A stretch of 64,000 nucleotides of DNA, taken from Agarophyton chilense (taxonomy: Eukaryota > Rhodophyta > Florideophyceae > Gracilariales > Gracilariaceae). Below are positions 12,409-63,996 of the stretch, piece after piece. Both the position numbers and the translations under genes were made by a program. The notes under the pieces were generated by a model. That model was not told the DNA's origin, did no database searches, and saw only the letters and a list, made by a program, of their open reading frames with translations. The stretch spans positions 62,001-126,000 of the forward strand of contig JARGXX010000113.1 in NCBI GenBank assembly GCA_030374765.1. The letters are read 5' to 3'. Every line of letters starts with the position of its first letter. Position 1 is the stretch's first letter.

Positions 12409-12594
12409 GGAATATACACGACGTACAACACGTAGCATAATGATTGGATTTAGACCAAAAAACATAGGTTACCCACCTCACGGAGCGCAGAATGCGCCGT
12501 GTTCCCCAATTTAGAGCTCACTTCCGGCCACATCTTCCGGACGCGAATCGGTTCGTCTTCCCACCCTTCTGCGCCAATCCTCTCTGCTTCCCAT
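12409..12594 (+). repeat. dispersed repeat copy A, left part
   Basis: This stretch is clearly similar, in inverted orientation, to about 35310-35522 (for example the shared ATGATTGGATTTAGACCAA and GAGCTCACTT). The copy is cut at 12594 by the insertion of Ty3 element 1 and resumes at 18298. The repeat has no coding capacity of its own that I can see. Its ends do not form obvious terminal inverted repeats, so its class (MITE, solo LTR or SINE-like) is undecided. Confidence 0.75.
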
Positions 12595-13062: not shown

Positions 13063-13088
13063 GAAATTTCTAACTGCTCATTCCGCGG

Positions 13089-15470: not shown

Positions 15471-15592
15471 CTGGCCTTACCAACAGCAAGCCGCCGCGTT
15501 CGGCAGGAGAACTGTCCCAGTACGTACACGGGGCTACCTGGATATCCTCCAGCATCCCGCGTTTCGCTGAGCGTGTCAGCCCACTTCGCAAA

Positions 15593-17785
15593 TTGCTTGA
15601 AAAAGCCTACGCCAAGGCAGGAGGATGTCATAAAAAGAAGGCTATCGCACGAATCTCGCTAGAAGATTTAGGCTGGAATGAACATCATCTGAACGCCTTC
15701 AATGACTTGCAAGCCCAAATACGAGAGGCTACTCGTCTGGCACATCGCAACCCAAATTTGACGCTGTGCATTTACACGGACGCCTCAGATAAGCACTCGG
15801 CTGCAGCGGTCACGCAGTGTCATCCTGATGAGCTCAATAAGCAGCTTCGAGACCAAACGCATGAACCATTGGCGTTTATTAGCTCACTGTTTTCAGAGCG
15901 TGAAGAACACTGGTATACATATGAACGTGAGGCCTACGCAGTCGTTCAAACATTCCGAAAGCTTGATTACATGCTTGCATGTGACCAAACCATCCGCGTT
16001 TTCACAGACCACCGCAATCTGCTGTTTGTTTTCAACCCGGTAACAATGGAGCCTTCTCTAGGACGCCACAAAGTACTTAAAGTCATTCCCTGGGCCCTTT
16101 ATCTCAGCGCCTTTAACTACCGCATCGAACACATTCCCGGTGACTCGAACGTCTGGGCAGACATCATGACACGCTGGATGCGCGGGTATCGAAAACCTCC
16201 TGCCATTCGACGAGTGGCTCCGGTGATACCTTTTGGCGGAGTCACAATGTACCCAGATGACCCTGAATTCCAGTGGCCCGATATCAGCGAAATCTTGGAT
16301 GTCCAGAAAAAGCACAAAACTACAGCTCCGGAAGCAGCAACGCTCCAGGATTCCCAGATCCTCTCTGTAAACGGAGCAACTTGGATACCAGACGACGCTA
16401 TTCACCTCAATCTTCGACTTCTCACCATCGCACACGCGGGGACTGCCGGTCATCGCAGTGGAGACTCCACCTGGCAGGCCCTTCGGACGGAATTCTTCTG
16501 GACTGATCAGCGCGACGATGTTCGTGATTTCGTGGCTGCTTGTTTACTCTGCGTTTTATCCAAAAGTGGCAACAAAGTACCGCGTCCGCTATCCACGACG
16601 CTACATGCTACCAAGGCAAACGAAATTATACATTTTGACTATGTTTTTCTTGGGCAAAGCGACAACGATCAAAAGTACGCCCTGATCGTCAAAGATGAAC
16701 TCAGTGGCTATGTATGGCTCAATCCATCCCCAACAGCCGATTCCAAACATGCAGTCTCGGTCCTTGCTCCTTGGACACGGATTTTCACAGCACCTGATGT
16801 ATGGGTTTCCGATCAGGGATCTCACTTCAAGAATCAGGTACTGGAGCTTCTCTCCTCTACCCATGGGATCCGCCACAACTTAACCCTCGCATACTCGCCC
16901 TGGATCAATGGAACCGTAGAGTCCGTCATGCGCTCTGTTATTTCTTCCATGAGAGCAATGTTGGCAGAACTGAAGCTAGGACCCCAAGACTGGCCATCCG
17001 TTCTACCCACTATCGCCACAGCGCTGAACGAAACTGGATTGGAGCGTCTCGGCCGCAATTCAAATGGAATCGTACGAAGCCCTCTTGAAGTCATGACTGG
17101 AATTCGACCAAAGCGCCAAATTCTTCGCGTCCTGCCGCCCTCTTTAGATCACCTCAACGCCAAGACTGTTACGCAAGCTCGTGCCATACAACTTCTCAAG
17201 ATCGAAGAGCTCCAATCCTCTCTCAACCAGATGCACGAAGAGGTCTCAAACCGAAACTTTAAGAGTCGCGAGCACGCCATTGCCAGGCACAACGCCGCAA
17301 CAAATATCATCTCCCCATCGTTCTCAGTCGGAGATTTTGTTCTCGTGCGCCATGCAACCGACCAAGGACACAAAATGCGCTTCAAGTGGCACGGCCCATG
17401 CCGCATCACCACTGTTCACAGTCCACTGGTCTATTCAATCAGTCCCATTTCAAACGGAAGAATTAAAAAAGCCCACGCAACCTGTTTAATCCCGTACAAA
17501 GACGCATTGCACGGAACACAAGTTCCTCAAGAAATGATCGAACTTGCCGATAAAACCGAATCTCGATACGAAGTCATAGACAAAATCGTAGACATCGGCA
17601 AAGACAAAGATGGTATTTGGCTTCGAGTCGTCTGGGATGGACTTCCTGACGAGCGTGACTGGACATGGCAGCTCGCCTCCGTTCTACACACTGATATTCC
17701 TGAGATGGTGCGCGCTTTTCTCGCAACTTGCAAGAAAAAGAAGCTAGCAGCGTCAACCATGCGCCAGCTAGGCATATCTGCCTGA
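15593..17785 (+). CDS. element 1 RNase H-integrase-chromodomain polyprotein, second part
   Basis: A 730-codon frame in phase -1 to the first part. Protein-like sequence extends upstream to a TAG near 15346 (CRKRRLVVSLPKSDF, then WCGRIIDSKGV), so the true junction lies at about 15345-15350. RNase H is at residues 55-200 (IYTDASDKHS, FTDHRNLLF). The integrase zinc domain has HAGTAGHRSGD, then CLLC. The integrase core has FDY, a KDELSGYVWL phrase, VSDQGSHF and GTVESV for D, D, E. The last 80 residues (YEVIDKIVDIGKDKDGIWL ... VVWDGLPDERDWTW) form a chromodomain-like module thought to steer integration to chromatin. The terminal TGA is at 17783-17785. Confidence 0.88.
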   Translation: MLEKAYAKAGGCHKKKAIARISLEDLGWNEHHLNAFNDLQAQIREATRLAHRNPNLTLCIYTDASDKHSAAAVTQCHPDELNKQLRDQTHEPLAFISSLFSEREEHWYTYEREAYAVVQTFRKLDYMLACDQTIRVFTDHRNLLFVFNPVTMEPSLGRHKVLKVIPWALYLSAFNYRIEHIPGDSNVWADIMTRWMRGYRKPPAIRRVAPVIPFGGVTMYPDDPEFQWPDISEILDVQKKHKTTAPEAATLQDSQILSVNGATWIPDDAIHLNLRLLTIAHAGTAGHRSGDSTWQALRTEFFWTDQRDDVRDFVAACLLCVLSKSGNKVPRPLSTTLHATKANEIIHFDYVFLGQSDNDQKYALIVKDELSGYVWLNPSPTADSKHAVSVLAPWTRIFTAPDVWVSDQGSHFKNQVLELLSSTHGIRHNLTLAYSPWINGTVESVMRSVISSMRAMLAELKLGPQDWPSVLPTIATALNETGLERLGRNSNGIVRSPLEVMTGIRPKRQILRVLPPSLDHLNAKTVTQARAIQLLKIEELQSSLNQMHEEVSNRNFKSREHAIARHNAATNIISPSFSVGDFVLVRHATDQGHKMRFKWHGPCRITTVHSPLVYSISPISNGRIKKAHATCLIPYKDALHGTQVPQEMIELADKTESRYEVIDKIVDIGKDKDGIWLRVVWDGLPDERDWTWQLASVLHTDIPEMVRAFLATCKKKKLAASTMRQLGISA

Positions 17786-17825
17786 GCACTACAGCTAAAC
17801 AAAGCCGTTGCGCTCATGGGGGCAC

Positions 17826-18293
17826 TGTTGCACGCTAGCGCCTGCTTGACCTCCACGCACGATCACGGTCAGCACTAGACTGCTGACCGACACGCTAATC
17901 GGTATCCCGATGCGGCAGCGCCCGATGCGCTCGCAACCGATACGCCGGCGATGCGCTGGCTCCGATTTATCGGACCTTCGCCGATGAGACGCCGCCTACA
18001 GTTTGCTCCTTCCTTTTACAATAAATACCATCGCCCGCCTTATACATTCGGCAGCCTTGGACGGAGGCAGTCGGCACATTACCAAACCATCTCTTGGCCT
18101 GCTCACGCGCACTTGAACCCTCACACCGCTGAGGGTGTTGCCTTCCGCCTACCGCAGGCAAGGCCTTTGATTGCCGCAGCCTCTGCGCTTTCGCTCGTAC
18201 TCATTGCGGTCTCCGACGTCCGCAATTCCCTTCGACACATCCATTCAACTGAACGTTCCGGTGTACTATCCTTCGGAGTCGCGGCGTGCCACA
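17826..18293 (+). repeat. element 1, 3' LTR (468 bp)
   Basis: This copy aligns with the 5' LTR over its full length with about 13 substitutions and no indel. It is preceded by a short G run (catggggg cac), which is the only candidate polypurine tract and a weak one. Confidence 0.93.
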
Positions 18294-18297
18294 CCAT

Positions 18298-18351
18298 TTC
18301 AAACTCCCAACCCACGAGTAGTCTCGCGCCAAGTCAACTCACATATGCGCC
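18298..18351 (+). repeat. dispersed repeat copy A, right part
   Basis: After the element 1 target duplication, the sequence matches the continuation of the repeat at 35283-35335 read in reverse (shared CGTGGG/CACGAG and TAGTCTCGC segments and a CATATGCGCC/CATGCGCC end). Together with 12409-12594 it rebuilds one interrupted repeat unit of about 240 bp. Confidence 0.7.
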
Positions 18352-22582: not shown

Positions 22583-22740
22583 GCGCAAAGTTCGGGCGAT
22601 GTAAGACGTATTTCTATACTCCGCCAGCATGATGCATCGGTCTTTCTAAATTTTCTCGGTTCCACGAGCATATTCCAACTTCAAGTTCTACACGCCCTTA
22701 GAGGATTCACAACAGTCAGTCTGTTTCCAACCATCCAGAG

Positions 22741-24445
22741 GTGAACTCTACTATTCCGTATGACTCCAAAAACGGGGATGCGCCATCAGAAGTTGCTCAT
22801 GCCAGCAGTGGCTTCAAATCGAAGTCCAATGTTTCTTCTGTGTTCCAATTGGGACCGGCTCCGCGCTTCGGATTTAATTCTCTGCCGTTGCAACCTCCGT
22901 CCTCTTGTGCAATGCATAGCACGGCTTACTTTTGTTCGGCTGGTACCATGCGATCTCCATCTGGTTTGGCTCGACGCAGTTGTCCGCATACAGCGGGCTT
23001 GGTGAGACAAGATCCTCTCGACGATGCCGATCTTTTCGATCAAGCTCCCTCGTTCGACCCAGTTGCTCTTCGGGATGACTCGTTGATCAGAAAGTACATC
23101 TTTAGCGGTTGCCTTCCCGATTGTCTGCCGCATGGAATTCATAGTCACGATTGGCGGACTAACTGTGCCTTGCTGGGCTACACGGTTTTGCGAGGTACCA
23201 ATGACAGTAAGGACGAACGCTGAACTCGGTTCACTAAGCTGATTTACAAGCGTCGGCAACGCTTTATCAGCACGGTAGTTCTCACAGGAGAGATGAACCT
23301 GGATACTCGGATGGCTCGTACCAACGGCGAAGGATAATCGTAAGTCGAGGCATTATTTGAAGTCGATGCCGACGAGTGGAGCGGCGAACGTTTTGTGTGG
23401 GACGGGGCACTTTGTTTTCGTCGGCCATTGATGTGTGCGGTTATGCGTTTCCTCCACAAGCGGGATATTTCCCCTATTGGAATTATTCCCGTTGAGAACA
23501 AAGCACGAGATCTCGCTTGGGGTACTTGGTCTCGTACCGAATGATCGCAATCGATCGAATTAGGCGGTATGCACGCGTTGGACGTTATGTAGCGAATCAC
23601 GAACATTGAGCGGCGATCGAGAGTCCTCGTGAATTTCCTGTGAAGCTCTCTTCGGCCATGACCTATCTTGGATCTGTCCTGATCGAATACCTGTTCTCGG
23701 GGTACTGGATGGTATTATTCGCCGAGTCTCTTGCCAAATGGCGGTCTATATTCTCTGGGGTGCATACGACACCTTTCGTGTGTGGTACATGTCGCCAACT
23801 GTGCGAAGATATGCGAGACAGCTCGACCTCTCCCTGGTGTTGGGGTCACGTGCCAATTACGAAGAGTTCCTACCATTGGTGGACTTGATCGGCAGTATTG
23901 ACTGGGATGGAGTTCCATTGGAGCAACCAGAAAAAGGCACACGGGTGCGAAGAAGAGACCACTCGCCAGGTCGTACAGCCAATTATGGCCACTTTTTATG
24001 GTACAAACCCTGTACTCGCTAGCAAATTACGTCTGATAAGGCTGGCGACCTTCGTGCAAATCCCTCGGAATTCCATTTAAATCAACGTACGGGTTATGTC
24101 TATGAATTGGCACATTCCGAATTTGCGGATCATGAATAAGAAGAAGCACACGGTGTGGATGCGGATCTCGATTTCGAGGATGGGCCGGAGCTGCCCATTA
24201 ATGCGCCTGCGTTGGTTACTTCGCTTTTCATGGATTCTCAGCTTGTAGTGGCCTCAAGCTCTCAACCTGCGCACTATCATGGGTCCTTTCAGCAACCGAA
24301 TGATGCGGAGGATTCTTTCTTAGCTCCCTTGAGGCAATTTCTCTTGGATGCGGGCTATCCGAAAGCCCAGCTGCAGGGGAATCCTGATGAGCTTCGAGCC
24401 ATGCTTTATAGGCATACCAGCAGGTACCCTTCTTGGTCGGCCTGA
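22741..24445 (+). pseudogene. element 2 antisense ORF, homologous to the element 4 antisense gene
   Basis: On the strand opposite to gag-pol three pieces align with the 618-codon ORF of element 4. Near 23045-23200 there is FDPVALRDDSLIRKYIFSG against FHPTAVRDDELMGSYVEDG, then HDWR against PDWR. At 23738-24022 there is FRVWYMSPTVRRYARQLDL against FRIWYIPPMLRTIMRQIDL, then the LGS..N, DWDGVPLEQP and DHSPGR phrases. At 24155-24445 the C-terminal acidic and helical part aligns. Stops and frame changes break it. Protein function is unknown. Confidence 0.75.
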
Positions 24446-35282: not shown

Positions 35283-35522
35283 GGCGCATGCGCTTTGAAT
35301 TTGAGCGAGACTACCCGTGGGCTGGGAGATTGAAATGGGAAGCAGAGAGATTAGGCGCAGAAGGGTGAGAAGATGATCCTATTTGCGTCCGGAAGGTGTG
35401 GCCGAAAGTGAGCTCTGAATTGGGTAAAACTGCGCATTCTGCGCTCTGTGAGTTGGGTAGTCTATTCTTATTGGTCTAAATCCAATCATTTCGCTATGTA
35501 TTTTACTTCTTGTATATTCCTT
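35283..35522 (-). repeat. dispersed repeat copy B, uninterrupted
   Basis: Inverted relative to copy A (12409-12594 plus 18298-18351). It reads through the CCAT site where element 1 is inserted in copy A, so it serves as the empty-site reference. Similarity fades on both sides. The adjacent minus-strand frame at 35486-35755 is unidentified. Confidence 0.75.
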
Positions 35523-37400
35523 CTCTGCCAAACATAGGCCCGCTCTACACCAGCATCAGACACGTCGCAGCCTGTAGATTTCCCCCAGATTACTGTCCGC
35601 TGTCCATTTCCGGGGACAGTAAAAATACTGTTCTCGTTTTTTCTTAACTTTCCGCTCTCTTGGTTTGCTTCTATAGCGACCACAGACAGCCTAACATTGA
35701 GAATGTGCCTTAATACGCCTTCGCGGCTATTGAAGTGCATCCTGAGCGGATACACGGTCCTGCGAAAAGCGCTGCCCTTCTGCTAACGCCTTTCACATAA
35801 CGATCAATATCTAATCTTCTGCAAGGCTGTACTTTCCCAAACGTTCTGCAAAACATATCAGGCAGACACAACTATCGAGTTTTTCACAGTCATGTCTACA
35901 ACTTAACAGAGTCGGGAGCTCATTGCAACTGATGTAGCCCTGGTTTTTTGGACGAAGACGACTGCAGTGCTATGGGGATCTCTGCGCAGGAATTAATGAG
36001 AGAAATGACTCCAATTATCATCTCCGAGCAAAATCTTTGCCAGTGATTTCATGGGCGAAAGTGGGCCAGAAAAATCATCGTTCCCAGACTGGGTTTTTTT
36101 GGTATGATACGAGCCATCAGTTTATGCGTTTGGCTTCTTAGAGCAGAATGTTACGCATCTATCCTTAAATGTTCTTTCAAATTGCGCACATACTCAGGCT
36201 CCACATTTAAAAAACTGCTTAGCGGTTTCGAAACACACTGCGCGCTGAAATCAAAATAGGTCCCTTTTTCTTGTATGTTGGTGGTTTTACGTCGGAAAGG
36301 GCTGCGTTTCAATTTAGTAGTGTGGCAAGTGAATTTTTAACTTCAATATTCGAGTAAGCGGGAGCAGTTTGCACTTAGTGATCGAACAAAGCACAGTTTT
36401 CTGTGGAAGAACCAGTTTCACAAAGGCTCTGAAAGGATTTCAAGAAATAGGACCCCTTCCATATTGCGTTGGAACAGCCGAAAGAACTCATAAAAAGTGG
36501 TTGTCCTGTCCGAATGACCAGTACTATTAGTACCGATGCTACAAAAGGTATCCGATTATGGTAATTCTTGTTGTTGTTACTGCCACCTAGGTATTCATAT
36601 ACTCAAACATTGTGAGCCCTTGAGTTCTGGGTGACTTTACAAATTATGATCCTTCGTCTTGGAAACGAAACATCGATGGAGTCCCATGACTTGTTTCCCA
36701 AATTCTTGATCTCCGTGTAGGCGATATAGCTATCTGGCCATCTATGCTCGGCGACGGTGAATTTACGCTAAAATTGAACATGATGAAGACAACCAGCGTC
36801 AGAGAGCATACCGTCAACCAGGTTTTAAAACAACAGAATTCTACAGCCAGTCAAACTCAATAGCCCGCAGAATGTGCGTTTGTGTAGAGCAGTCCTTAAA
36901 TGGGAAAAACCTCTCGAGTTGCCCAAGACCCCGCTCTCGTGAGAGGTGTAACGTAGTGGACGAGCCCTTTGCACCACCCTTATGTGGGTGTAAGACCACG
37001 ATGGTAACTGGATATACCTGCGAAAGTGAATAGAAAAAAGAGATAGGAGATAATAGAGAAATCCAAGTATGGAGCATCCGTAGACGTCTCTGTTCTTGGA
37101 ATGATAATTTACTGTGCTAGATAGCTATGTTGGAGCGCAGACTCCTGACAAATTTGGTGGTTTCGCAGTTCGCACCAGTTCACACCAGTTGCACTGTAAC
37201 ATTTTTAGATTTTTGAAAATGTCGTTTCTACTCCTCCTAGAACCCACAGTGCTAGTCGCAGTTCGAGGACAGTTTACTGTCTCATTTCTTTTCTCGCTAT
37301 TTTTACATTCACGAACGTCACCAGCATCACTGGTCAGCAACCAATTCTTTGTCAAAACACATTTACTTAATCAACTGCCATCCCCGACATCGGAACACAG
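35523..37400. other. no recognisable feature
   Basis: Frames at 35486-35755 and 36841-37077 (both minus) and 37125-37355 lack motifs I recognise. The DNA is otherwise AT-rich without visible repeats. Confidence 0.35.
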
Positions 37401-40502: not shown

Positions 40503-40949
40503 TGTAACACAATGACGGGTTAAATCAGCGCACGGGTCTCCACCGGTGGTAGCGTGGTAGAGCGAGTCCTAAGGTTCGTATCCTTGACGGCGACACTCCC
40601 ACAGTACTTGGTGCAATGGGCTGGCGTTTACTGCGTAGTCCTACATGTTGGAGCTACGGAAACGATGGCTTGAAGACCAAAGGGTGGAACTAATATACCA
40701 AAGGGGGTCATTTAGTATCCTAACGGTGCCTACCGTACTCTAAGGGAGAAGCGTCACTCGAACCAAGTAAATAGTACTGGCGAGGGGCTGAGATCTCCCT
40801 GGTACTGTAGTGTTAATCTATTACAATAAATAAAGTAAAATAATAATCTATTTGAGTCCACCTGAGGTCGACCCGTACACGTGTCATCTGCAAGATCCTT
40901 CGGGGCCCGGCGGCTTACAGGGCTCAACTGCTATCACTGCTCCTTCACA
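40503..40949 (-). repeat. element 3 LTR, left copy (3' in element orientation)
   Basis: 447 bp, same length as 49180-49626. It contains a tRNA-like segment (gtggtagagcg, then aaggttcgtatcctt) near 40550-40585. Confidence 0.92.
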
Positions 40950-41032: not shown

Positions 41033-42086
41033 ATGGGTGAACCTCCGATCTTGCCTTCAGGGTCGGAACGTCGTGATCCTCAGCGTCCTAATGGCCTGGA
41101 CACGAGCGTTGTCGTGCCCAACATGTCGGCGTCTTATGACCAATCCGGGGGTCAGTTGTTTTTGTTACCAGTGGGCGCGACGGGGCGTCGCATCGCCACC
41201 ATCTTCGGGGGTACCAATGCGTAAGAGCTGACCCTTGGCGGCAGGTTGGCAATTAGTTCACCTAAGGTACTGTACGCACACCGGGGGGGGTTCCTTGCCC
41301 CTTTTCCTATCCTTCGGTATTCTTTTGGCGACCCTACGCGCGTTGTCCGAAGTGAACCACGGTGCGCGCTTTTTCCATTCAAGCTCACGCCAGTCATCCT
41401 GCCCGATTCGGTTTCATCTTTCCTTTTTCCCTTCGCGATATTCCTCCATTGGTCGCGCGCGATGCCCCAATCGCCTCATAAGCCCGTCGGATATGCCATT
41501 CTCCCTCCGGACTGTGCCGCTTCCGTCGGATTTCTTATTTATTTCCCGGCGGACGACCCTGGAACCAGCGGTAGCATGACCTCAAAAAACCCAGCGGAGA
41601 GCTCCTCTGGATACTATATGGCCTATGAACTCCCCGGGGGCCGCCTTGCACAAACCATCGGACGAAATCCGCGGGCAGTGCGTCATGCCCTTCTGCCGTC
41701 CCGTTGGTATTAATGCCTCGATGGACATTGCGACCGTCCTAAGGAAAGCTTACTCCTGGGCGCGTCGCTCGGTGCGTTACGCAGCGGTTGTCCAACAGGG
41801 TCAGGATCTAAAGACCACCATGGTCAATCTTCTGCAGCAAAATGCGCAGGCGATGTCCCAGAGGGTTACTGCCGACTTGGATGCCCGGTATGGTCTCAAT
41901 TTGAGTGACCGGGAGGTTTCCGATGGTGACAATAGTTCCTCTGGAGAATACTCACCGAAGAAGCGTGCTCGGCTCGCTGAGCCTGGTTGGGGTGGTCCAG
42001 GTGGCTCCTCGGGTCACCCTAGTCCCTTTTTTGATCCTGCAGGTGCCAAGGAGGACGACAGAGGTACTCCTGCGCCACCCCAGTGA
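41033..42086 (+). pseudogene. element 3 antisense ORF, a different protein from elements 2 and 4
   Basis: From ATG 41033 the frame reads MGEPPILPSGSERRDPQRPN and meets a TAA at 41222-41224. It continues in the same frame as ELTLGGRLAISSPKVLYAHR to about 41660, then a frame change leads to INASMDIATVLRKAYSWARR, a helical segment (MVNLLQQNAQAMSQRVTADL) and a basic PKKRAR motif near the C-terminus. It ends PAPPQ at 42086. PKKRAR fits a nuclear localisation signal. I see no similarity to the antisense protein of elements 2 and 4. A gtaaga at the TAA could be a donor site, but an intron is not supported otherwise. Confidence 0.55.
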
Positions 42087-42213: not shown

Positions 42214-42859
42214 TCAAGTTTTCGTGCCTTGGAACGGCGTCGCATCTTGAGAGCGTCCCGGGTCTTCTTCAGGTGTCTCCGACGGACCGAATTTATTCCC
42301 TGATGCAATAGCTACGACAAACCGTCGTGCTCCGGCGAACCGTCGTGTCGGGAGGCGGTTTGGGAGGCGTTTTGGGATTATTTGGGCCAGTGGTTGGATG
42401 ATTCGGACTAATGGTTGCCCCCTCCTGAAGGCCGCGCTCCGAGTGGCTGATTCTGCGCCAATAGCGGGCGATAAAATAAGCCGGAATAGTTTGAGGCTCT
42501 TGCCAAGTATCTTCCTCAGGTGTGTAGCCGATCCAACGGACGCGATAGCGCATAGTTCCATCTTCTCCCATACCGACGGAGATGATGCGCTCAATCACAT
42601 ATTCTAGTTGGTGGTCATCCTTTGGAAGGAGAGTGTGGTCCAGAAGGGCGAATCCATCGGAGTCGGTTGGGAGCGATGGATCATAGTAGCTGTCCTTGAC
42701 CATCTTGTCCGTGGGGCTAGTCGAGTCTACGAGAACTGCTTTAGGGGGTATGGTGACTTGATTGTCGACCTGAGGTTGTGGTGCTTCCTTTGGGCCAGGG
42801 GGCTGGGACGTTCGTGGTCCGGAGGAACTGGGAGCTCGTGTCACGCGGTCAATGGACAC
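42214..42859 (-). pseudogene. element 3 chromodomain segment
   Basis: A 188-codon frame with a Pro-rich start contains the chromodomain EYVIERIISVGMGEDGTMRY, VRWIGYTPEEDTWQEPQ and a short helix. It is preceded (42860-43120) by the integrase C-terminal module (FRKGDLVYLDRPP). Chromodomains of Ty3 integrases are thought to bind modified histones and bias integration. It is well preserved relative to the rest of the element. Confidence 0.8.
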
Positions 42860-43121
42860 GGTGTCCTGTAGGCCGTCAATGAGTAAAGTGATGCTATGTT
42901 CATTGGCCTAAAGGACTTTGTAAGGTCCTCGTAGAGCAGGGTAAGAGCTTCCGCGTAGTGGCCTCGAGTTCCTCACTGTTCTTCGGTGGCCTGTCCAGGT
43001 AAACCAGATCTCCTTTCCGAAAGGTCGGTGTGTTCCAAACGGCTTTGTCGAAGTTGGACTTGTAGCGCCGTTGGGCTTTGGTTAGTACAGTTCTGGCCGA
43101 TTGGAGAATGCGATCAATGCG

Positions 43122-49179: not shown

Positions 49180-49626
49180 TGTAACGCAATGACTTGTTAA
49201 GTTAGCGCACAGGTCTCGACCGGTGGGAGCGTGGTAGGGCGGGTCCTAAGGTTCGAATCCTTGACGGCTGCACTTCCAGGATGCTTGGTGCAATGGGCTG
49301 GCGTTTACTGCGTATTCCTACATGTTGGAACTACAGAAACGATGGTTTGAAGACTAAAGGGTCGAACTAATATACCAAAGGGGGTCATTTAGTATCCTAA
49401 CGGTACCTACCGTACTCTAAGGGAGAAGCGTCACTCGAGCCAAGTAAATAGTACTGGCGAGGGGCTGAGATCTCCCTGGCACTGTAGTGTTAATCCATTA
49501 CACTAATAAAATAACATTAATAATCTACATGAGTTTAGCTGAGGTCGACCCGTACACGTGTCCCCTGCAAGATCCTTCAGGGCCCGCCGGCTTACAGAGC
49601 TCATCCGCTATCATCGCTCCTTCACA
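49180..49626 (-). repeat. element 3 LTR, right copy (5' in element orientation)
   Basis: 447 bp. A perfect B-box-like GGTTCGAATCC lies at about 49250, preceded by a D-arm-like gtggtagggcg. The GTTGT duplication follows at 49627. Confidence 0.92.
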
Positions 49627-55016: not shown

Positions 55017-55659
55017 ATTGGAATTGATGAAACCATTGCCGATACGAGAACTTAGTAGCAGATGGAAACGAATAACGGCCTCGTGGTTTGGGAGAACGTT
55101 TTGTAGGTGCGTGTGGTGGAGAACAGGGGGTTGGCGGTAGAGGTAGATCGGACACCCCAGATGGCATGTGCGTGAGAAGAACTGTGGAGCAAAACCCGGC
55201 GACGGGAAGTGCTCTAAAGGTGTTCGAAGCCTTGCTCCCTGGGGGAGGCAGACTCAGAGACAGAGCCCTCCGTTCCACCCGTAGTGTGGGGTGTAACTCC
55301 CACGGGGGATTCCGGCAGTACCGACGGAGGTGAGGGGTAGAAACCGTGGATCGGAAATGGGTATGGGTATCCCAAGGAATGGGGGAAAATCCGGCGAAGA
55401 GGAAACTCGGGGCGAGGGTCGGGCACTAACAGGCACCGGACCCGAGAACCAGAAAAGGGGCGAAACAACAAAAGAAACCCAATACAGGGGCGAAAACCTG
55501 TCCTCGAAAGGAAACACAAAAAGCACGCAACAAGTAAGCAGAACCCCCACGGAGTATCGTGCACGCAGGTCGTCTGAGCGGTCCCAAGGGGGTGGTTGCA
55601 CGGAACCCAAACGTGGGCACTCTCCAAGTGGAGTCGTGTCCCTACGCAGGCGTTGCTAA

Positions 55660-56094
55660 CCAGAGCCCGTTCTGGGTTGTAAGGCCGAAACGATGGCGAC
55701 GAAGAACCTCTAAAGGTATCGAAGACCAACCGTGGTTACCATTTACTCTGAGCTCGGACTGTCAGATCTCGCCTCCCTAAGTAGGGCCCACTAACTAAAC
55801 TCTACAGTAGTGCACACCTGCTCAGGGCCATACACGTGGAGATCCCACTGCCAGGGCCCAAAAGTCCAACGTTCTACAAATATCCGAAAATCGGTGCCAA
55901 AATTAAGCCACGTGTATCACGGGGCCAATCCAACCATGGGCCATCCGAATTTTCCCTTATAGGCGAAATATAACCAGAAAACAGTGCCACCTCAGCACAC
56001 CTTAGAGGGGATCATAATCATAACCCTCGGAGGGTTCAATCCTCATTCTATGAGTTGCATCTTCAAGTATCCCCTAACTGGGCGTTGCTCTACA
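55660..56094 (-). repeat. element 4 LTR (3' in element orientation); left boundary unresolved
   Basis: The right boundary is clear: the plus strand reads GGGCGTTGCTCTACA at 56094, followed by the polypurine tract. The stretch 55680-55760 (gaaacgatgg, then aaagg, then taccat/actct) is distantly similar to the element 3 LTR interior, so the LTR must reach at least this far left. Candidates for the left end are TGTAAGG near 55676, TGTAGGTG near 55101, or a point near 55520; the partner LTR lies beyond the window, so I cannot decide. Confidence 0.55.
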
Positions 56095-56173: not shown

Positions 56174-58030
56174 ATGGGGTCCTTCACCACTTCTGAGGAT
56201 CGCCACAAAACCGGCAGATCGGTACAACTTTCTTCTACTCCTCCGACTTTCGGCGATAAGCAACTTCTCGGAGCAGCGGTTTCGACTAGCCCTCTCAAGG
56301 GAATGAACCCATACGTCATCAACCCACTCTCGGGGCCGTCGGCCTCCGCGCCGGCGGACAACAAAGCTCCCCAGCAGGGTGGATATTTCTCCGGTTTGGA
56401 TGCGGCTCCGTCAGGTACCGAACCTTCCGCCTCGGCGGGCAACCGACATCCTCAGGAGGATTTGGACATCACTGCGGTGGCGTGTAACTCCGCTCATGCG
56501 ATGCCCTTGGTAGCAAACTCCAGAGGTTGGATCTCAAACGAATCCTTTCGAAGGTGGAGTCCCCTTACCGATCCGGTGATATATTCCCGCGCTCCGTGGT
56601 TCCATCCGACAGCGGTTCGCGACGATGAGCTCATGGGCTCCTACGTGGAGGACGGCTTATTGCCGGGTGGCCTACCTGTTGAGGTTGTACGTTCTCCCGA
56701 TTGGAGGGTGCGGGTAGCCATAGAGCCTCAGTATCTATACCGCAGTCGCGGGGAGTCCCTGGACAAAGCGCGCGCAGCGATGGCGGCTCTGGCCTACCAG
56801 CGATTGGAGAGGTCACGCTTTGACCATCTGGTTCCCCCGGAATACGGGTTCGACGTCGCCTATTACCGCACGTACGGTGAGGTCTCCTACGGGGATAAAC
56901 TGGCAGCCTTTCCCGAAGCCGAGTTCCGCGGACCGGGTTTTCCTCTCCGAGAAGATATGCTCCAATGGAGTCGTCCCATCCTTCGGGCTGAATTCAGGTA
57001 CCTCCAACGGCAGTTTACCCAGTATGGGTTCGATCGACGCGTGCGCTTCGAGCGCCGCTCGCGCTCCCGTTTCGGATTCCTTGTCCCGCATCCTCACGTG
57101 GAACTGGAGCGTATCCGTAACACGGCGAAAGTTGGGCGATTCGTGCCCCTTCCAGCTTGGTGGAGTAAGGTCGAGGTCCCCCGAGGGTGCTTTGCTGAAC
57201 TGCCCCCGTGCATCTACTATATCGGGTCTCGTTTGATGCACGACCCGAACTCGGGATACTGGGCCCTCGTTGCAGCCGAGTGGGCAGCCCGCGTAGCGGC
57301 GCACCTCCTCTGGGATGCTCATGACCATTTCCGTATCTGGTATATTCCTCCGATGCTACGGACCATCATGCGTCAGATCGACCTTGTCCCAGCGTTAGGT
57401 TCGGCCAGCAACGTGCAGGACCTGTATCCAATCTTGGACGTGATCGACAACACCCAATGGGATCGAGTTCCAGTGGCAAATCAGCCCGCAGGGGAAGGAT
57501 CCGCGCGAGACAAGTCTCCTGGCCGGTACGATCCGGGCTCCGGAAACTGGGTCTATTACAATCCCTTCGAAGGGGTTCGCATCAGCGCGGCGCAAGCACG
57601 GGCGCTGATTGACTCGCCTCGACCGATGCCGGTGGGACACCCGACGGGGCTCATTTATACCGACGATTACGAGTACGAGCCTCCAGTAGACATCGACGAT
57701 CCAGCGTTGGATAACGAAGTGCCAGCTCCTAGTGGAGTACTCCCTGTGGAGCCATCTGCACCCTTCCAACCAGTGGGAACGACCTCAGCTGCGGCGGCGA
57801 ATGCATCCGGTGGCGGTCCATCTGCTCCCCCCGGGTGGGGTGTGAACACCCTTGCGCAGGCGCCGGTTGCCACTCCGCAAGCGGATAGTGTGCGACAAGA
57901 CCTCGTGAACGCAGGCATTCCGATTCCCCCGGGTATGACGGATGTGAGCCAGATGTTGGCTTTCGCCTCGGCGTACCATCAGTGTCAGAATCCCAACGGT
58001 GGGGCGGGTCCCTCCTCGGGCTTTCCGTAG
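56174..58030 (+). CDS. element 4 antisense gene, 618 codons, unknown function
   Basis: An intact frame on the strand opposite to gag-pol, from ATG 56174 (MGSFTTSEDRHKTGRSVQLS) to TAG 58030. Residues 1-130 are Ser/Pro/Gly-rich and probably disordered. A folded-looking core spans about 130-475, rich in Tyr, Trp and Arg, with RDDELMGSYVEDGLLPGG near 145, YYIGSRLMHDPNSGYWAL near 350 and AHDHFRIWYIPPMLRTIMRQ near 381. The last 140 residues are Pro/Ala/Gly/Ser-rich with a final helix (DVSQMLAFASAYHQ). No signal peptide or membrane segment, so it is not an envelope gene. Not similar to any family I know. A very diverged homologue lies at the same place in element 2. The gene is convergent with pol and would need its own promoter, possibly in the 3' LTR. 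Confidence 0.8.
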   Translation: MGSFTTSEDRHKTGRSVQLSSTPPTFGDKQLLGAAVSTSPLKGMNPYVINPLSGPSASAPADNKAPQQGGYFSGLDAAPSGTEPSASAGNRHPQEDLDITAVACNSAHAMPLVANSRGWISNESFRRWSPLTDPVIYSRAPWFHPTAVRDDELMGSYVEDGLLPGGLPVEVVRSPDWRVRVAIEPQYLYRSRGESLDKARAAMAALAYQRLERSRFDHLVPPEYGFDVAYYRTYGEVSYGDKLAAFPEAEFRGPGFPLREDMLQWSRPILRAEFRYLQRQFTQYGFDRRVRFERRSRSRFGFLVPHPHVELERIRNTAKVGRFVPLPAWWSKVEVPRGCFAELPPCIYYIGSRLMHDPNSGYWALVAAEWAARVAAHLLWDAHDHFRIWYIPPMLRTIMRQIDLVPALGSASNVQDLYPILDVIDNTQWDRVPVANQPAGEGSARDKSPGRYDPGSGNWVYYNPFEGVRISAAQARALIDSPRPMPVGHPTGLIYTDDYEYEPPVDIDDPALDNEVPAPSGVLPVEPSAPFQPVGTTSAAAANASGGGPSAPPGWGVNTLAQAPVATPQADSVRQDLVNAGIPIPPGMTDVSQMLAFASAYHQCQNPNGGAGPSSGFP

Positions 58031-58427: not shown

Positions 58428-58718
58428 TTACCCGACTTGGGCACGATCCAGACTTGGAGGCAAGGTTACCCGAGCGCGTCGGTGATAGGATAAAACCTTA
58501 GACCTCGGAAGGTGCTCAATGGGTTCCACTGTATCTTCATCAGGCGAGAATCCGTACCATCGGACTTGGTAGCGAACTTCTCCCTCGGGGGTGTAGATGT
58601 GACGCACGATGCGATCGATAACGAATTCCCGCGGGTATACTTTTCCCTGTTCGGGCTTCTCTTCCATCTTGGAACGCTCAAGTTCCCTTGAGGGTGTTAA
58701 CGTAGGGTCTAGACACAC
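58428..58718 (-). pseudogene. element 4 chromodomain remnant
   Basis: A 96-codon frame contains EFVIDRIVRHIYTPEGEVRY, QVRWYGFSPDEDTVEPIEHL and a short helix, a chromodomain with the aromatic Y/W positions mostly kept (the usual EDTWEP reads EDTVEP). With integrase absent upstream it is separated from the pol frame, so it is probably not expressed as an integrase fusion. Confidence 0.75.
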
Positions 58719-58989
58719 CCCGGTGGGTTCTTTTCCGTGTTGCGAGCGGGTCTCAGCACTTTGTCCAAACGGCGCCGAGTGGCCTGTGGGCTACGTTGTA
58801 ACTTCCGTTTACGGAGTCAAAACGGCCCAGTTTTAGGTTCTTCTTAAAGCTGAGATCTTCCCGATAACAACGGTGTTCTTAGATTCCGTGACGGTTGAGA
58901 AACCGCGACGCGGTAGCGTCTCCAATCTCAGGGGGGTAAGACTTCAACGTCAACCCGAGCTACGGGGACGAAGGTTGCTCTGGTGCAAC

Positions 58990-59140
58990 GCGCCGTGCGA
59001 CGGTTGGTCGTCCGAGCCTTTTGATTGGCTCGGTGAGGCGGGTTGCGCGGCGGTTGGTCGTCAGAGCCTTTTGATTGGCTCGGTGAGGCGGGTTGCGCGA
59101 CGGTTGGTCGTCAGAGCCTTTTGATTGGCTCGGTGCCATT
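58990..59140 (+). repeat. 50-bp tandem repeat at the missing-integrase site
   Basis: Three copies start at 59001, 59051 and 59101 with cggttggtcg, and each contains gagccttttgattggctcgg. The first two are complete (with gaggcgggttgcgcg) and the third is cut after ggctcggtg. It lies between the RT/RNase H frame and the chromodomain, exactly where integrase is lost. Confidence 0.9.
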
Positions 59141-59164
59141 CGACGTGGGCCACATAAATGCGCG

Positions 59165-59194
59165 GGCGCCGGTTGCCACTCCGCAAGCGGATAT
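59165..59194 (+). repeat. 29-bp duplicate of a segment of the antisense gene
   Basis: ggcgccggttgccactccgc and the following aagcggata are identical to about 57859-57887 inside the antisense ORF. In both places the plus strand can read APVATPQAD. Confidence 0.85.
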
Positions 59195-59299: not shown

Positions 59300-61309
59300 C
59301 TATTCCCATTCCATAACAGAGAGCCAAATTTGGTCAACCTCGTCGTCGAGATCTTCCTCGTGCGGGTCCGCTGACACAGATCGTTCCCGAGAAAGCGGGG
59401 TTTGGGTGTGCGACACCTCAGTGTCTCTTCCGCGGCGGCGGCTGATCGTCGGCTCTGCAGGCGTTCCGGGTGCGGAGTTCTCCACACGACTCTCCCTAGG
59501 CGGGGTTTCGTCATCTTTTCTGACGTCGTGCTCGGCTGGGTCGGCGGTGATGTCGCTACCCATACGTTGGGGTTGTGACTTCTCTGTCGCCGGCTCGGTC
59601 AAGCTCGCCGTCTCACTGTGAGAACTAGAATCCCTGTTAGGGCGACTGGCTGACGCCGAAACATCGTCCTGCGAAGGAACTAAGTCCTCCTCCCCCTCCT
59701 TAGGCGGAGAGCCAGGAGGCTTGATTACCTCCGGTGGGGGAGTAACTCTGTAAGAGTTCGTTGACTGGGCCCTTGAGGGAGAGGGCCCAGGTTCGGGAGT
59801 ATCCGAAGTTAAAGAGCCGGTCGGCGAATCCACACTCTCGTTGACGAGTATATCGTCACTAACATCATCCGTCAGCGGTTGAGCTCCTCCCTCGAGGTCC
59901 GATTCCATAAAGCATGGGATGTCATCGTCCTCGTAGGGTTCCGTTTCCGCTGTGGTTCCCAAGCGGGATAGTGCATCAGCCTGAGTGTTCAGCTTCCCTT
60001 TCTTGTACAGAATCTCAAAGTCGAATTTCGACAGTCGGAGACGCCAGCGCATTAGGCGGCCCGAGGGTTCGGAGATCTCCAGGAGCCAACGCAAGCATGC
60101 GTGGTCCGTATGGACTTTGAAACGAGTACCCATCAGATAGGGGCGAAGTGTAGCTAAGGCCCACACAACGGCTAAACATTCTTTCTCGGAGACCGAGTAG
60201 TTCCTTTCATGGACATTCAGGGAACGTGACCAGTACCCAATAGGGTGACGTTCACCATCCTCAGAGGATTGGAACAGTGCACATCCTACTTGGTTTGCAC
60301 TAGCATCGGTGTCCACTTCGTAAGGGAGCCCAGGATTGGGTAGAGCCAAGATTGGCGGTGATGTTACGGCATTCACCAGTGCCGTGAAGGCAGACGCTTC
60401 TGCGTCGCCAAAAGATTCCAGTTCAACTGGTTGTCCCTTCGTCAGGAGCCTGTTGAGGGGGGTGGCAATATCCGCAAAGTTCGGGACGAATCGTCGATAC
60501 ACGTTACACAGACCTAAGAAGGATCGCAACTCCGTTTGAGTTTTCGGGTGTTTTGCTTCCTTCAAGGATTTCACTCGTACTTCATCTATTGAAAGCTGTC
60601 CGGGACGGATGATATGACCCAGATACTTAACCGAATCGGTGAAAAACTCGCACTTCTTGAGTTTCAAGGTGATTCCCGCGTCGCGGAGTATCTTCATTAC
60701 GTCCCTGACGTGTTCGAAGTGGTCATCCAGGTTGTTGGAGAAGACAATAATGTCGTCTAAATACACTAGACACGTCCTCCACTTGAAGGGACCCAACAGA
60801 ATGTCTATCGCCCGTTGAAACGTTGCGGGGGCATTTGTCAACCCAAAAGGCATCCTCCGGAATCGGAAAAGTCCTTGATGACACACAAAAGCCGTTTTGT
60901 CTCGATCTTTTTCCCTAATAGGGACTTGCCAGTAGCCTGAATTGGCGTCAAGGGTAGAGAAAACAGTAGCGCTCCCAAGGGAGTCGATGTATTCGTCCAT
61001 CCGAGGGATCGGGTACACATCCTTAATGGTTACCTCGTTCAGGCGTCTGTAATCGATGCAGAAACGCCACGATCCATCCGGTTTCGGAACTAACACCAGT
61101 GGTGAGGCCCCAGCGGACTGGGCAGGTTCAATTACGCCCGCTTTAAGCGTCTTCTCCACCTGAGATTTCCCCTCTTCCCGAGCTTTCGGTCCAGCCCTGT
61201 AAGGGTGTTGGGCAATAGGCCGAGTGTTCGGTAACAAGTCGATGCGGTGTTCTGTAATCCCAATAGTTCCAAGGGAACCATCCCACATGGGGGTAAATTC
61301 ACGAAGCAT
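59300..61309 (-). CDS. element 4 reverse transcriptase and RNase H with an acidic tail, 669 codons
   Basis: In frame with the protease across one TAG; the frame is open from just after that TAG (DLNHVPASHREKLRHMLREF), so the start used at 61309 is arbitrary. RT motifs: FCIDYRRLNEVTIKD, FSTLDANSGYWQVPI, MPFGLTNAPATFQ and LVYLDDIIVF at about residue 184 with the YxDD box intact. RNase H: YEVDTDASANQVG near 335, SEKECLAVVW and FKVHTDHACLRWLL near 400. From about 455 to the end the sequence is Ser/Pro/Glu-rich low complexity (PEPGPSPSRAQSTN and similar), where the integrase zinc domain would be expected. It ends with TAG after VMEWE. Confidence 0.9.
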   Translation of the reverse strand: MLREFTPMWDGSLGTIGITEHRIDLLPNTRPIAQHPYRAGPKAREEGKSQVEKTLKAGVIEPAQSAGASPLVLVPKPDGSWRFCIDYRRLNEVTIKDVYPIPRMDEYIDSLGSATVFSTLDANSGYWQVPIREKDRDKTAFVCHQGLFRFRRMPFGLTNAPATFQRAIDILLGPFKWRTCLVYLDDIIVFSNNLDDHFEHVRDVMKILRDAGITLKLKKCEFFTDSVKYLGHIIRPGQLSIDEVRVKSLKEAKHPKTQTELRSFLGLCNVYRRFVPNFADIATPLNRLLTKGQPVELESFGDAEASAFTALVNAVTSPPILALPNPGLPYEVDTDASANQVGCALFQSSEDGERHPIGYWSRSLNVHERNYSVSEKECLAVVWALATLRPYLMGTRFKVHTDHACLRWLLEISEPSGRLMRWRLRLSKFDFEILYKKGKLNTQADALSRLGTTAETEPYEDDDIPCFMESDLEGGAQPLTDDVSDDILVNESVDSPTGSLTSDTPEPGPSPSRAQSTNSYRVTPPPEVIKPPGSPPKEGEEDLVPSQDDVSASASRPNRDSSSHSETASLTEPATEKSQPQRMGSDITADPAEHDVRKDDETPPRESRVENSAPGTPAEPTISRRRGRDTEVSHTQTPLSRERSVSADPHEEDLDDEVDQIWLSVMEWE

Positions 61310-61354
61310 GTGCCTCAGCTTCTCCCGATGAGATGCGGGTACATGGTTGAGATC

Positions 61355-62473
61355 CTATTTCTCCAATTCCTGAACAAGATCCGTCTGGTCTGCTCCTGTG
61401 ATAGGGGCCGTAACCTCCTGAGGTCTAAAGTGTTCAGCGTGTGGATCTACAGTCGTATGCTCACCGTCTTCCGCGATTTCGGCAGTGTCCTCCCCCTCCT
61501 TAGGGTCCGCCACACCAAGGACCTCTGCGATAGAGATATTTGTAGGTACGACCGCATGCGGGTGTGGAAGAACAGAACCCAGGATCTGGTGTTTGACCAA
61601 ATGCTGCGTTGTCTTTCCAAAGTTGGCTACCAAAACCTTGGAAGGTTTATCCGGTTCCACGGAGACAACCCCATTCGCAAGGGCGAGTTGACGCCGCGTA
61701 TACAGAGACGGGTTCGGTTGTACCACATGCACACCAATTTGCTTGGTAACAACTGTGACCCAAACCTGGGTTTCTGGCGGGATAGCCACTGACTTCGCAA
61801 CCTTTACCCGTGTAGACACCGGGTCCTTCTTCACAGATTCCTGCGCGACGGGGAGAGGAACGCGTGTTCGCGCTGCTCCCTGTAAGGGTTTACGAACGAT
61901 TGGGATCGTAGACCCGTCTTCGAGTTCCACAGTTCTATTCCGAGGACGGATGGCTTCCACGAAGCGGTCGCAAAAGTCACAACCCAGTATGACTGGTGCT
62001 GCAAGTGACTTGCATACAATAAACTCCAGTTGAACAAGATAGGAGCCTAACCTCACCATGAGGGAAATTGTACCCAGTGTCCGTAGCGGGTTGTTGTTCG
62101 CATCGGCGATATCCAAACGTGGACCGGTACTAACTTGGACCCGGAGCAGCGGGGGTAACAATTCCACATGAATTAAGTTAGGAGCGGCTCCTGTATCCAG
62201 GACAGATATTTGACGAACCATAAACTGGTTGGACAGGCCGAAGTCGGCGAATACTTTATAATTCCGCTTGGCCATTACCATAACTCGATCCGGAATACGG
62301 AGATTACGGGACTGTATCCACGGGCGACGGAGGACACTAAAGTATCCCGAGTTAACGTCGGTGTCAGCCGTTTTCCTTAATAGGATAGTCACAGCTGGGG
62401 AGCGAAGCTGGAGCGCCTCGGGCGTCTTCAACTCCGGCTTAGAAGACGCCCCTCCCGCAGGGGAGACTCCCAA
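61355..62473 (-). CDS. element 4 protease domain, 372 codons
   Basis: The frame is open upstream of 62473 as far as the gag end, so it is likely expressed by -1 frameshifting, not from the TTG at 62473. Near residue 92, VLDTGAAPNLIHVELLP is an intact retropepsin active site. The flap-end motif VILGCDFCDRFVEA is near 165. A linker (AKSVAIPPETQVWVTV) and an acidic segment follow. It stops at a TAG (61355-61357) in the same frame as the RT ORF downstream. Confidence 0.85.
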   Translation of the reverse strand: MGVSPAGGASSKPELKTPEALQLRSPAVTILLRKTADTDVNSGYFSVLRRPWIQSRNLRIPDRVMVMAKRNYKVFADFGLSNQFMVRQISVLDTGAAPNLIHVELLPPLLRVQVSTGPRLDIADANNNPLRTLGTISLMVRLGSYLVQLEFIVCKSLAAPVILGCDFCDRFVEAIRPRNRTVELEDGSTIPIVRKPLQGAARTRVPLPVAQESVKKDPVSTRVKVAKSVAIPPETQVWVTVVTKQIGVHVVQPNPSLYTRRQLALANGVVSVEPDKPSKVLVANFGKTTQHLVKHQILGSVLPHPHAVVPTNISIAEVLGVADPKEGEDTAEIAEDGEHTTVDPHAEHFRPQEVTAPITGADQTDLVQELEK

Positions 62474-62475
62474 GT

Positions 62476-63996
62476 TTAGTTTTTCGAAGCGGACCCCACC
62501 GAATTCGGTGCAGCTGCCTCGAAGGGGACCGGTTGTTCCCCGTTCGCGGGTACAAGTTCTGTATCCCTGTCAGCAAGGTGAGCTCGGAGTATCCTTTGTT
62601 TCTCATAGGACCTACTCGGGACTCGAGCTTTCTCCTCAGGGGTCAGAGCCTCGTACTGAGCGATAATTCGTGAACCCTCCCGCAGGGGAAATGTGCAGTC
62701 TGGTGCTTTGTGACCACGGAGGTAACACAAATAGCAAATCAGCTCTGCCGGGTTCGGTTGTGGACGTGAATCCACGCGACGTGGTGCTGTATCCCTCCAT
62801 CCGGGGCGAGAGAACCGAGCAGCGGTATTCGCAAAAGGTAGCGATGCAGCTGGCACCCTCCGTCCTTGGGTATAGAGCGCAGGGTCTTCATCCGTAGTCG
62901 GAGCGGATGTCGACGGCAACTCAGACGTACCCATAGATTCGGGGTTACTTCCCATGAAGTGAATGTTATCATTGACCCCCACAGGGGCAGGGCCTCCTGC
63001 GAGTGACAAAGACGAGTTACCTCCATCGGCGAGGAGTGCACTTGTCGGCCGACTCTTTCGGTTCTGCCGGGCACGGAGAGTATCCCCCTCAGCCTGGGCG
63101 TACTGAACCAATTCCAAGTAGGTCAGCTTGCGCTTCTCTTCCCGATGTCGGGCAACTAATGCCCTTATCGAGGGGTCTAAACCATCCACAAACATGGAGC
63201 ATCTCTCGTAGGCGGGGAATACATTCCCGCATCGGTGAAACGCTTTATTCAAGCGAGTTGAATACACCGTTTCGGTTTCCATCGGCTTCTGCCGCGTATC
63301 CCTTAATGCAAAGGTTGCTTCCTGAATCGCATTTCCAGTAGCGTATGACCTCAAGAGGTACTGCACCGCTTCGGGCCAGCACGTGACTCCCCCTTCCGAG
63401 GCTCGGGATAATCCACGGACGGAGTTGAACTGGTCTTCAGCCATCCCCTTTAAGAAATAGGGTAATGCAAGATACGCTTGCGCTTCACTCATACCGAGGA
63501 TGTCAGCCTCCTGGACGAACCTCGCAAGGAAATCGAGCACCAGAATTGGGTCTGTTCCTGTGAACTCCCTCTTCTGTAGGGTGATGCTCAGTCTTTTGAT
63601 GTAGTCCTTGACCTTACCCGTTCCGCGGGATGTTCGATCTCCCGAAGGGTTATCCAACCAGTAATAGCGGTACGATAACAGCTTCCGATAGAGAGGATTA
63701 GTCGGCTTCAGCTCCCTTAATCCAAGGTGTTTCCTACCCTTCTTCCGGGTACGGATTGCCCCTTGAGAGGTGTAAGTAGCCTTCGACCGAGTCGCCCGGG
63801 ATGACCGGCGTTCATCTTCACTATCCGAAGATTCGGAGGACGAACTCGATGACGAGCGATTGGGATCGGAATCCGATAAATTCTCTTGGAGGTGAACCCT
63901 CTTCTTTGACTTGCGGCGGTCCCGTTTAGCGGAGCGGTGTTCTTCGTCTTCCGAAACGTCGGGTTTATCCTTCGAGGCTTCTGCGTCTCCGTCCAT
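62476..63996 (-). CDS. element 4 gag, 506 codons
   Basis: It starts MDGDAEASKDKPDVSEDEEH, an acidic then basic and Ser/Asp-rich N-terminus (residues 1-75). A capsid-like region at about 130-300 includes FTGTDPILVLDFLARFVQEA and PEAVQYLLRSYATGNAIQEA. A CCHC zinc knuckle CYLCYLRGHKAPDC sits near residue 420, fitting CxxCx4Hx4C exactly. It forms the virus-like particle and packages RNA in related elements. It ends SASKN followed by TAA, next to a candidate frameshift site. The ATG at 63996 lies four bases from the window edge; no earlier start can be checked. Confidence 0.88.
   Translation of the reverse strand: MDGDAEASKDKPDVSEDEEHRSAKRDRRKSKKRVHLQENLSDSDPNRSSSSSSSESSDSEDERRSSRATRSKATYTSQGAIRTRKKGRKHLGLRELKPTNPLYRKLLSYRYYWLDNPSGDRTSRGTGKVKDYIKRLSITLQKREFTGTDPILVLDFLARFVQEADILGMSEAQAYLALPYFLKGMAEDQFNSVRGLSRASEGGVTCWPEAVQYLLRSYATGNAIQEATFALRDTRQKPMETETVYSTRLNKAFHRCGNVFPAYERCSMFVDGLDPSIRALVARHREEKRKLTYLELVQYAQAEGDTLRARQNRKSRPTSALLADGGNSSLSLAGGPAPVGVNDNIHFMGSNPESMGTSELPSTSAPTTDEDPALYTQGRRVPAASLPFANTAARFSRPGWRDTAPRRVDSRPQPNPAELICYLCYLRGHKAPDCTFPLREGSRIIAQYEALTPEEKARVPSRSYEKQRILRAHLADRDTELVPANGEQPVPFEAAAPNSVGSASKN
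62479..62485 (-). promoter_or_regulatory. candidate -1 frameshift site at the gag/pol junction
   Basis: The minus strand reads TCG AAA AAC TAA in the gag frame. A -1 shift on AAAAAC gives CTA AAC TTG, which enters the open protease frame immediately (LNLGVSPAGG). The heptamer GAAAAAC departs from the canonical X XXY YYZ at its first base, so efficiency is uncertain. Confidence 0.45.

What the first reader, a model, noticed from the sequence alone, without database searches (positions are those of the whole stretch)
56174..58030. Intact antisense gene inside a Ty3-type chromodomain retrotransposon, conserved in a second diverged element
A 618-codon ORF lies on the strand opposite to gag-pol, between the chromodomain and the 3' LTR. 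Element 2 carries a broken homologue at the same place (22741-24445) with aligned motifs over three segments (RDD.L...Y, FR.WY..P..R...RQ.DL, LGS..N, then the C-terminal helix). Two diverged elements keeping the same protein implies past selection on it. Plant Tat-lineage elements are known to have antisense ORFs near the 3' LTR, but I do not know of one in chromodomain elements of algae or oomycetes. The protein has no TM or signal peptide, so it is not env. It might be a silencing suppressor, a particle protein or a regulator.
Basis: partly seen in the sequence, partly recalled or inferred. Interest (0 to 1): 0.88.

Follow-up and report, generated by a model that had tools for sequence, protein, structure and literature searches.

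The report
Antisense gene in red-algal retrotransposons
Jumping genes in a farmed red seaweed carry an extra gene written backwards near one end; its protein resembles nothing known yet selection has kept it, which suggests that it helps or controls the element in a way not yet understood.

Summary
The 618-codon ORF (56174-58030, +) is real and lies opposite gag-pol between the chromodomain and the 3' LTR of a Ty3-type element. The host is probably the red alga Agarophyton chilense (a protein so labelled matches at 100%). Element 2 belongs to a family (B/C) with open 607-611-codon homologues, 35-37% identical to A. Element 3 holds a remnant of a third family (D), a remote homologue by profile comparison (score 70.6; best of 60 shuffles 30.6). 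Among listed hits, 17 of 17 chromodomain-B, 9 of 9 chromodomain-A and 37 of 38 integrase-B pairs are opposite and downstream. B versus C dN/dS is 0.12-0.13. Within A, variants shared by four or more copies are constrained (0.35-0.37), private ones little or not; 7 of 7 copies chosen by chromodomain were broken. A 48%-identical relative exists elsewhere. No known domain was found; structure prediction never ran. Best reading: an antisense accessory gene, placed like those of plant Tat elements but without their TRP28 domain. Its function is inferred. The window copy lacks integrase.

The parts
56174..58030 (+). Antisense gene, family A, 618 codons
55183..55874 (-). 3' LTR of element 1
   Evidence: 99.57% identical over 692 bp to the 5' LTR beyond the window
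58431..58790 (-). Chromodomain ORF of element 1 (sense)
   Evidence: PF00385, 33.9 bits, cut-off 25.1
59303..61354 (-). RT-RNase H ORF of element 1; about 1.36 kb holding the integrase in other copies is absent at 59810/59811
   Evidence: PF00078, PF17917; comparison with other copies
61358..62281 (-). Protease-like ORF of element 1
   Evidence: PF13975, 17.2 bits, below the cut-off of 28.2
62479..63996 (-). gag ORF of element 1 (by position; no Pfam match)
   Evidence: relatives in elements 2 and 3
22615..24421 (+). Broken antisense homologue in element 2 (family C)
   Evidence: tblastn with A and B proteins
41580..42086 (+). Remnant of the family D antisense gene in element 3
42293..42907 (-). 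Sense frame of element 3 with a chromodomain-like sequence (read by eye in the window; no Pfam call on it)

Best explanation
Shown: a protein-coding gene lies antisense between pol/chromodomain and the 3' LTR of chromodomain Ty3 elements in the red alga Agarophyton chilense; it is shared by diverged element families (A; B and C; remotely D), has relatives in other assemblies, and evolved under purifying selection in the lineages that transposed. Inferred: it is transcribed from a promoter in or next to the 3' LTR, running against gag-pol, and makes a soluble, arginine-rich, probably nuclear protein of about 580-660 residues that acts in trans as an accessory regulator of the element (transcription or silencing of copies, or nuclear handling of its RNA or DNA), as proposed for the antisense genes of plant Tat elements. 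I put the gene and its selection at 0.95 and the nuclear regulator role at about 0.35; the figure below is for the whole.
For: ORF beyond chance. Homology A-B 35-37%, A-P0001 48%, A/B/C-D by profile, score 70.6 against at most 30.6 in 60 shuffles. Fixed antisense place. dN/dS 0.12-0.13 for B-C; shared variants in A 0.35 and 0.37, internal branches 0.50 without stops. ORF rate equals that of the chromodomain ORF and is below the flanking non-coding parts. No TM-like stretch; 47 Arg, 9 Lys; basic cluster near the C-terminus of D and P0010 (nuclear-signal likeness is recalled, not tested). Plant parallels: passages of PMC11963269 and PMC7264820.
Against: No transcript or protein evidence. Seven of seven copies chosen by chromodomain are broken and their private variants show no constraint (N/S 1.97 of expected). 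Family A copies were chosen by protein similarity, which favours low N/S. Within-B variants show no clear constraint (0.90, 0.86). Codons 44-110, 401-500 and 501-570 show little or no third-position excess. The nuclear role rests on analogy and a recalled motif; A lacks an obvious lysine-rich signal.
Confidence: 0.5

Rival explanations
1. The antisense protein is a structural or particle-associated protein (capsid-like, assembly or movement protein), not a regulator.
For: Long, soluble-looking protein with a conserved aromatic-rich core; kept as a whole protein in several families.
Against: No profile similarity to the element's gag (score 14.2); no Pfam or PDB sequence match; antisense transcription is an odd way to express a particle protein (inference).
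Confidence: 0.2
2. The conserved thing is antisense transcription (an RNA that tempers the element, for instance through small RNAs), and the protein is secondary.
For: Antisense RNAs with regulatory roles are discussed for other elements (PMC7264820, passages). Fixed antisense place.
Against: Selection acts on the amino-acid sequence: dN/dS 0.12-0.13, saturated synonymous sites with conserved protein.
Confidence: 0.12
3. A host or viral gene was picked up recently by one lineage and hitch-hikes (transduction), without use to the element.
For: No relative outside elements is known that would tell its origin.
Against: Present at the same place in diverged families, with purifying selection between families.
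Confidence: 0.05
4. Chance ORF in GC-rich sequence, or constraint from the sense strand.
For: The region is GC-rich (0.585), which lowers stop frequency; all seven chromodomain-chosen copies are broken.
Against: 650 codons against at most 496 in 2000 resamplings; 9-20 stops in each of the other frames; protein homology across families with third-position excess in this frame.
Confidence: 0.02

Closest known systems
Antisense additional ORFs (aORF-3R) of plant Tat-lineage elements: Retand (TRP28), Grande gene23, RIRE2, PvRetro13
   Same: Antisense to gag-pol, between pol and 3' LTR, present in most copies of a family, protein without clear function (passages of PMC11963269 and PMC7264820).
   Different: No TRP28 (PF04195) match at E up to 1 in 8 A/B/C and 7 D members; element has a chromodomain whereas Retand is described as a non-chromovirus lineage; host is a red alga.
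Antisense accessory genes of retroviruses (HTLV antisense proteins, as discussed in PMC11963269 and PMC7264820)
   Same: Antisense gene near the 3' LTR; a 3' LTR promoter is the analogy.
   Different: No sequence relation was sought with a specific retroviral protein; no Pfam match; far longer protein (recalled).
Chromodomain Ty3 elements of other lineages (plant chromoviruses, oomycete Chronos, Ectocarpus chromodomain Gypsy)
   Same: Ty3-type RT and RNase H, integrase in other copies and chromodomain.
   Different: In the passages found, the word antisense is absent from the papers on plant chromoviruses and Chronos and used only for small RNAs in the Ectocarpus paper. The RT clade of the algal elements was not determined here.

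Membership tests
Antisense aORF between pol and 3' LTR (aORF-3R kind) | ORF antisense to gag-pol between pol and the 3' LTR | tested here: met
   17/17, 9/9 and 37/38 pairs; D 3/4 and 8/9
Antisense aORF between pol and 3' LTR (aORF-3R kind) | Present in many copies, not a single transduced gene | tested here: met
   71, 75, 150 and 150 scored places in capped lists
Retand TRP28 antisense protein | Transposase 28 domain (PF04195) | tested here: not met
   no PF04195 match at E up to 1 in 8 and 7 members
Retand / Tat lineage | RT of the Tat lineage | not tested
   no named RT references were at hand; the chromodomain speaks against it
Chromodomain Ty3 element | Ty3-type RT and RNase H plus chromodomain | tested here: met
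   PF00078, PF17917, PF00385 over cut-off
Chromodomain Ty3 element | Integrase present and chromodomain fused to its C-terminus | tested here: inconclusive
   absent from the window copy; present in two others; chromodomain lies in its own 120-codon frame in A copies, so the fusion was not shown
Env-like gene | Transmembrane segment | tested here: not met
   highest 19-residue hydropathy mean 0.93; no dedicated TM predictor was run
Nuclear regulator | Nuclear localisation and nucleic-acid binding | not testable with these tools
   basic cluster in D and P0010 only

The most novel reading that the evidence does not exclude
An undescribed protein family without any known domain is an old accessory gene of red-algal chromodomain Ty3 elements: inherited with the elements through at least three diverged families, always antisense before the 3' LTR, and acting as a nuclear anti-silencing or regulatory factor, a convergent counterpart of the antisense genes of plant Tat elements and of retroviruses.
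Probability: 0.35. Interest if true: 0.8.

Novelty: new variant of a known kind. Interest (0 to 1): 0.62.

Why it matters
The papers seen describe antisense accessory genes for plant Tat-type retrotransposons and retroviruses, and leave their function in retrotransposons open. A sequence-unrelated, selected protein at the same antisense position in chromodomain elements of red algae would mean that the arrangement arose or was kept more than once, so the position itself probably matters. The gene is abundant and open copies exist in several families, so transcription, localisation and selection can be tested directly.

Tried and rejected
Chance ORF, sense-strand constraint and a single transduced gene were rejected. 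Kinship with the element's gag or RT was not seen by profile comparison (scores 14.2 and 27.5). Pfam, NCBIfam and PDB sequence searches gave nothing above noise. No relative among phages (A protein only), nor in the pattern-based scans of viral contigs and prokaryote genomes. A-B dN/dS is not usable because synonymous sites are saturated. Within B there was no clear signal (singletons 0.90, shared by two or more 0.86). Within D dN/dS was 0.47-0.48 for the two informative pairs, including decay after insertion and a mis-framed N-terminus in L059. The share of chromodomain elements without the gene was not estimated, because the hit lists are cut at 71-150. No integrase-A pair was found among the 150 best integrase hits, so the A integrase distance rests. 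Literature: nine answered searches (one search listed none) showed no paper on antisense ORFs in red-algal elements; the library lacks most subscription papers, and a red-algal genome paper seen only in a reference list (Petroll et al. 2025) was not read.

Full report
WHAT IS THERE. The ORF at 56174-58030 (+) has 618 codons. On the - strand around it are a chromodomain ORF (58431-58790), an RT-RNase H ORF (59303-61354), a protease match below its cut-off (61358-62281) and an ORF taken for gag by position (62479-63996; no Pfam match). The LTRs are 55183-55874 and, beyond the window, the equivalent of 64734-65425, 99.57% identical over 692 bp. Against two other copies this one lacks about 1.36 kb at 59810/59811, which encodes the integrase there; a third copy lacks still more from the same point. 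The window's copy is young by its LTRs but defective.

HOST. Three relatives of the protein are labelled Agarophyton chilense, and three of family D. One of them (P0002, 248 aa) matches one of 150 scored places in this genome at 100%. The genome held is 79.8 Mb in 135 contigs; a male reference of G. chilensis (the same species under its other name, PMC7232761 abstract, listing) is given as 76.07 Mb (PMC12502185, passages). I take the host to be this farmed red alga; the 18S search did not complete.

COPIES AND FAMILIES. Family A: 71 scored places (of 1889 candidates) are 94-100% identical; 38 of the 71 have no stop inside by my count. Family B/C: a 97-aa piece of element 2's homologue matches 150 scored places (of 1254 candidates); 16 of the 150, by my count, lie in a frame of 607-662 codons without a stop in the match. 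Ten places were fetched: nine of these 16 and one with a 369-codon frame. Eight have a collinear open frame of 607-611 codons (one of them without the first ATG), one is out of frame at its N-terminus, and the tenth (L056, closest to element 2) is broken upstream. The A protein is 35-37% identical to these over 382-477 residues.

A THIRD, REMOTE FAMILY. Element 3 (LTRs 40503-40949 and 49180-49626) has no A- or B-like match, but its + strand ORF 41580-42086 has 150 scored relatives (of 862 candidates; 62-100% identical) with open frames up to 698 codons. Three fetched copies show a protein of about 650 residues; two of the three have a chromodomain-like frame on the other strand within the stretch (by eye). 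Profile comparison of the A/B/C alignment with the D alignment gives probability 95, score 70.6 over 169 columns (90.5 and 59.0 with the smaller alignment A2). Sixty column-shuffled versions reach at most 30.6, the reversed alignment 21.2, gag 14.2, RT 27.5. Single D sequences against the same profile score 24-47, five of seven near the RT background. I read this as remote homology with moderate to good support.

FIXED PLACE. Pairing listed hits by position (lists cut at 71-150): 17 chromodomain-B pairs, all opposite and downstream at 858-1112 bp; 9 chromodomain-A pairs, all opposite and downstream; 38 integrase-B pairs, all opposite, 37 downstream at 2355-2662 bp; no integrase-A pair. For D, 3 of 4 chromodomain pairs and 8 of 9 integrase pairs are opposite and downstream; the outliers lie over 3 kb away and may belong to neighbouring elements.

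RELATIVES ELSEWHERE. P0001 (581 aa, unnamed assembly) is 48% identical over 91%. P0003 (67% to A over 222 aa) and P0006 (39-42% to intact-frame B proteins) are from unnamed assemblies. P0010 (674 aa, unnamed) is 32% identical to D over 87%. None was found among phages or by pattern scans of viral contigs and prokaryote genomes.

SELECTION. Between nine B copies and the C copy L056, pS is 0.69-0.72 and pN 0.22-0.23; dN/dS for the two pairs computed is 0.12 and 0.13. A-B synonymous sites are saturated, pN 0.47-0.48. In family A (38 loci, 32 distinct), nonsynonymous over synonymous changes relative to a context-matched expectation are 0.80 for singletons (490 variants), 0.68 for variants in 2-3 copies (65) and 0.35 for those in four or more (29); no stop is among the last (0.37 of 31 variants with seven copies added). 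On a tree, internal branches give 0.50 with no stop (58 changes), terminal ones 0.72 with 19 stops (639). These copies were picked by protein similarity, which favours low values. Seven copies picked by their chromodomain were all broken: three with internal losses of about 0.95-1.0 kb, one matched only over its first 311 bp with a stop, three near full length with one to three stops; their private variants show no constraint (68 N, 14 S, 6 stops; 1.97). So copies decay freely after insertion while the transposing lineages kept the protein. Within B (nine copies) no clear signal (0.90, 0.86); within D 0.47-0.48. The ORF's substitution rate (0.0150) equals that of the chromodomain ORF (0.0151) and of the LTR (0.0153) and is lower than between LTR and ORF (0.0278), ORF and chromodomain (0.0221), and chromodomain and RT (0.0359); codon position 3 is at 0.0207. 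Third-position excess is present in codons 1-43 (57 changes against 23 and 24), but codons 44-110, 401-500 and 501-570 show little or none.

PROTEIN. About 110 N-terminal residues rich in Pro, Ser, Gly and Ala, a conserved core of about 350 residues, an acidic low-complexity stretch, and a short conserved C-terminal part. 47 arginines and 9 lysines; no TM-like stretch. D proteins and P0010 carry a basic cluster near the C-terminus that looks like a nuclear localisation signal (recalled motif, not tested). No Pfam, NCBIfam or PDB sequence match above noise.

HOW IT PROBABLY WORKS. By place and orientation it resembles the antisense ORFs of plant Tat elements (PMC11963269, passages; PMC7264820, passages and section 7), for which these papers report nuclear localisation (Grande gene23) and an own promoter, and propose regulatory roles. 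It is not a member of the TRP28 family by the tests run. My commitment: an antisense transcript from the 3' LTR side yields a nuclear accessory protein that regulates the element in trans. Shown: gene, place, conservation, selection. Inferred: transcription, localisation, role.

NOVELTY. Nine answered literature searches showed no antisense gene in red-algal or chromodomain elements in their listings; the library is incomplete. It is a new protein family in a new host group and element type, but of a known kind of arrangement: a new variant of a known kind.

Noticed in passing
59810/59811; L015+L016: The window copy lacks about 1.36 kb (integrase) at this point, and the C135 copy jumps from the same point to a place about 2.65 kb further along the window copy, so internally shortened copies share a breakpoint.
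   Followed up: partly
57853-57887 and 59159-59193: A 35-bp piece of the antisense gene recurs (97%) next to the end of the pol ORF.
   Followed up: no
58997-59135: A 50-bp tandem repeat (2.8 copies, 96% matches) lies between the chromodomain and RT ORFs.
   Followed up: no
L061, L064, L065: Two family A copies have lost the same part of the antisense gene (about nt 220-1170) and a third another 1 kb, which suggests further deletion derivatives.
   Followed up: no
65426 equivalent (L010): The outer end of the 5' LTR lacks the last bases seen in the 3' LTR, and no target-site duplication was visible by eye.
   Followed up: no
12592-18305: Another element on + with LTRs 96.3% identical, two long ORFs (793 and 604 aa) with RT and integrase domains; no ORF of 150 aa or more on the opposite strand inside it.
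   Followed up: no
12400-12595 and 35334-35529: A 196-nt inverted repeat, 84% complementary, one arm touching the LTR of the element at 12592.
   Followed up: no
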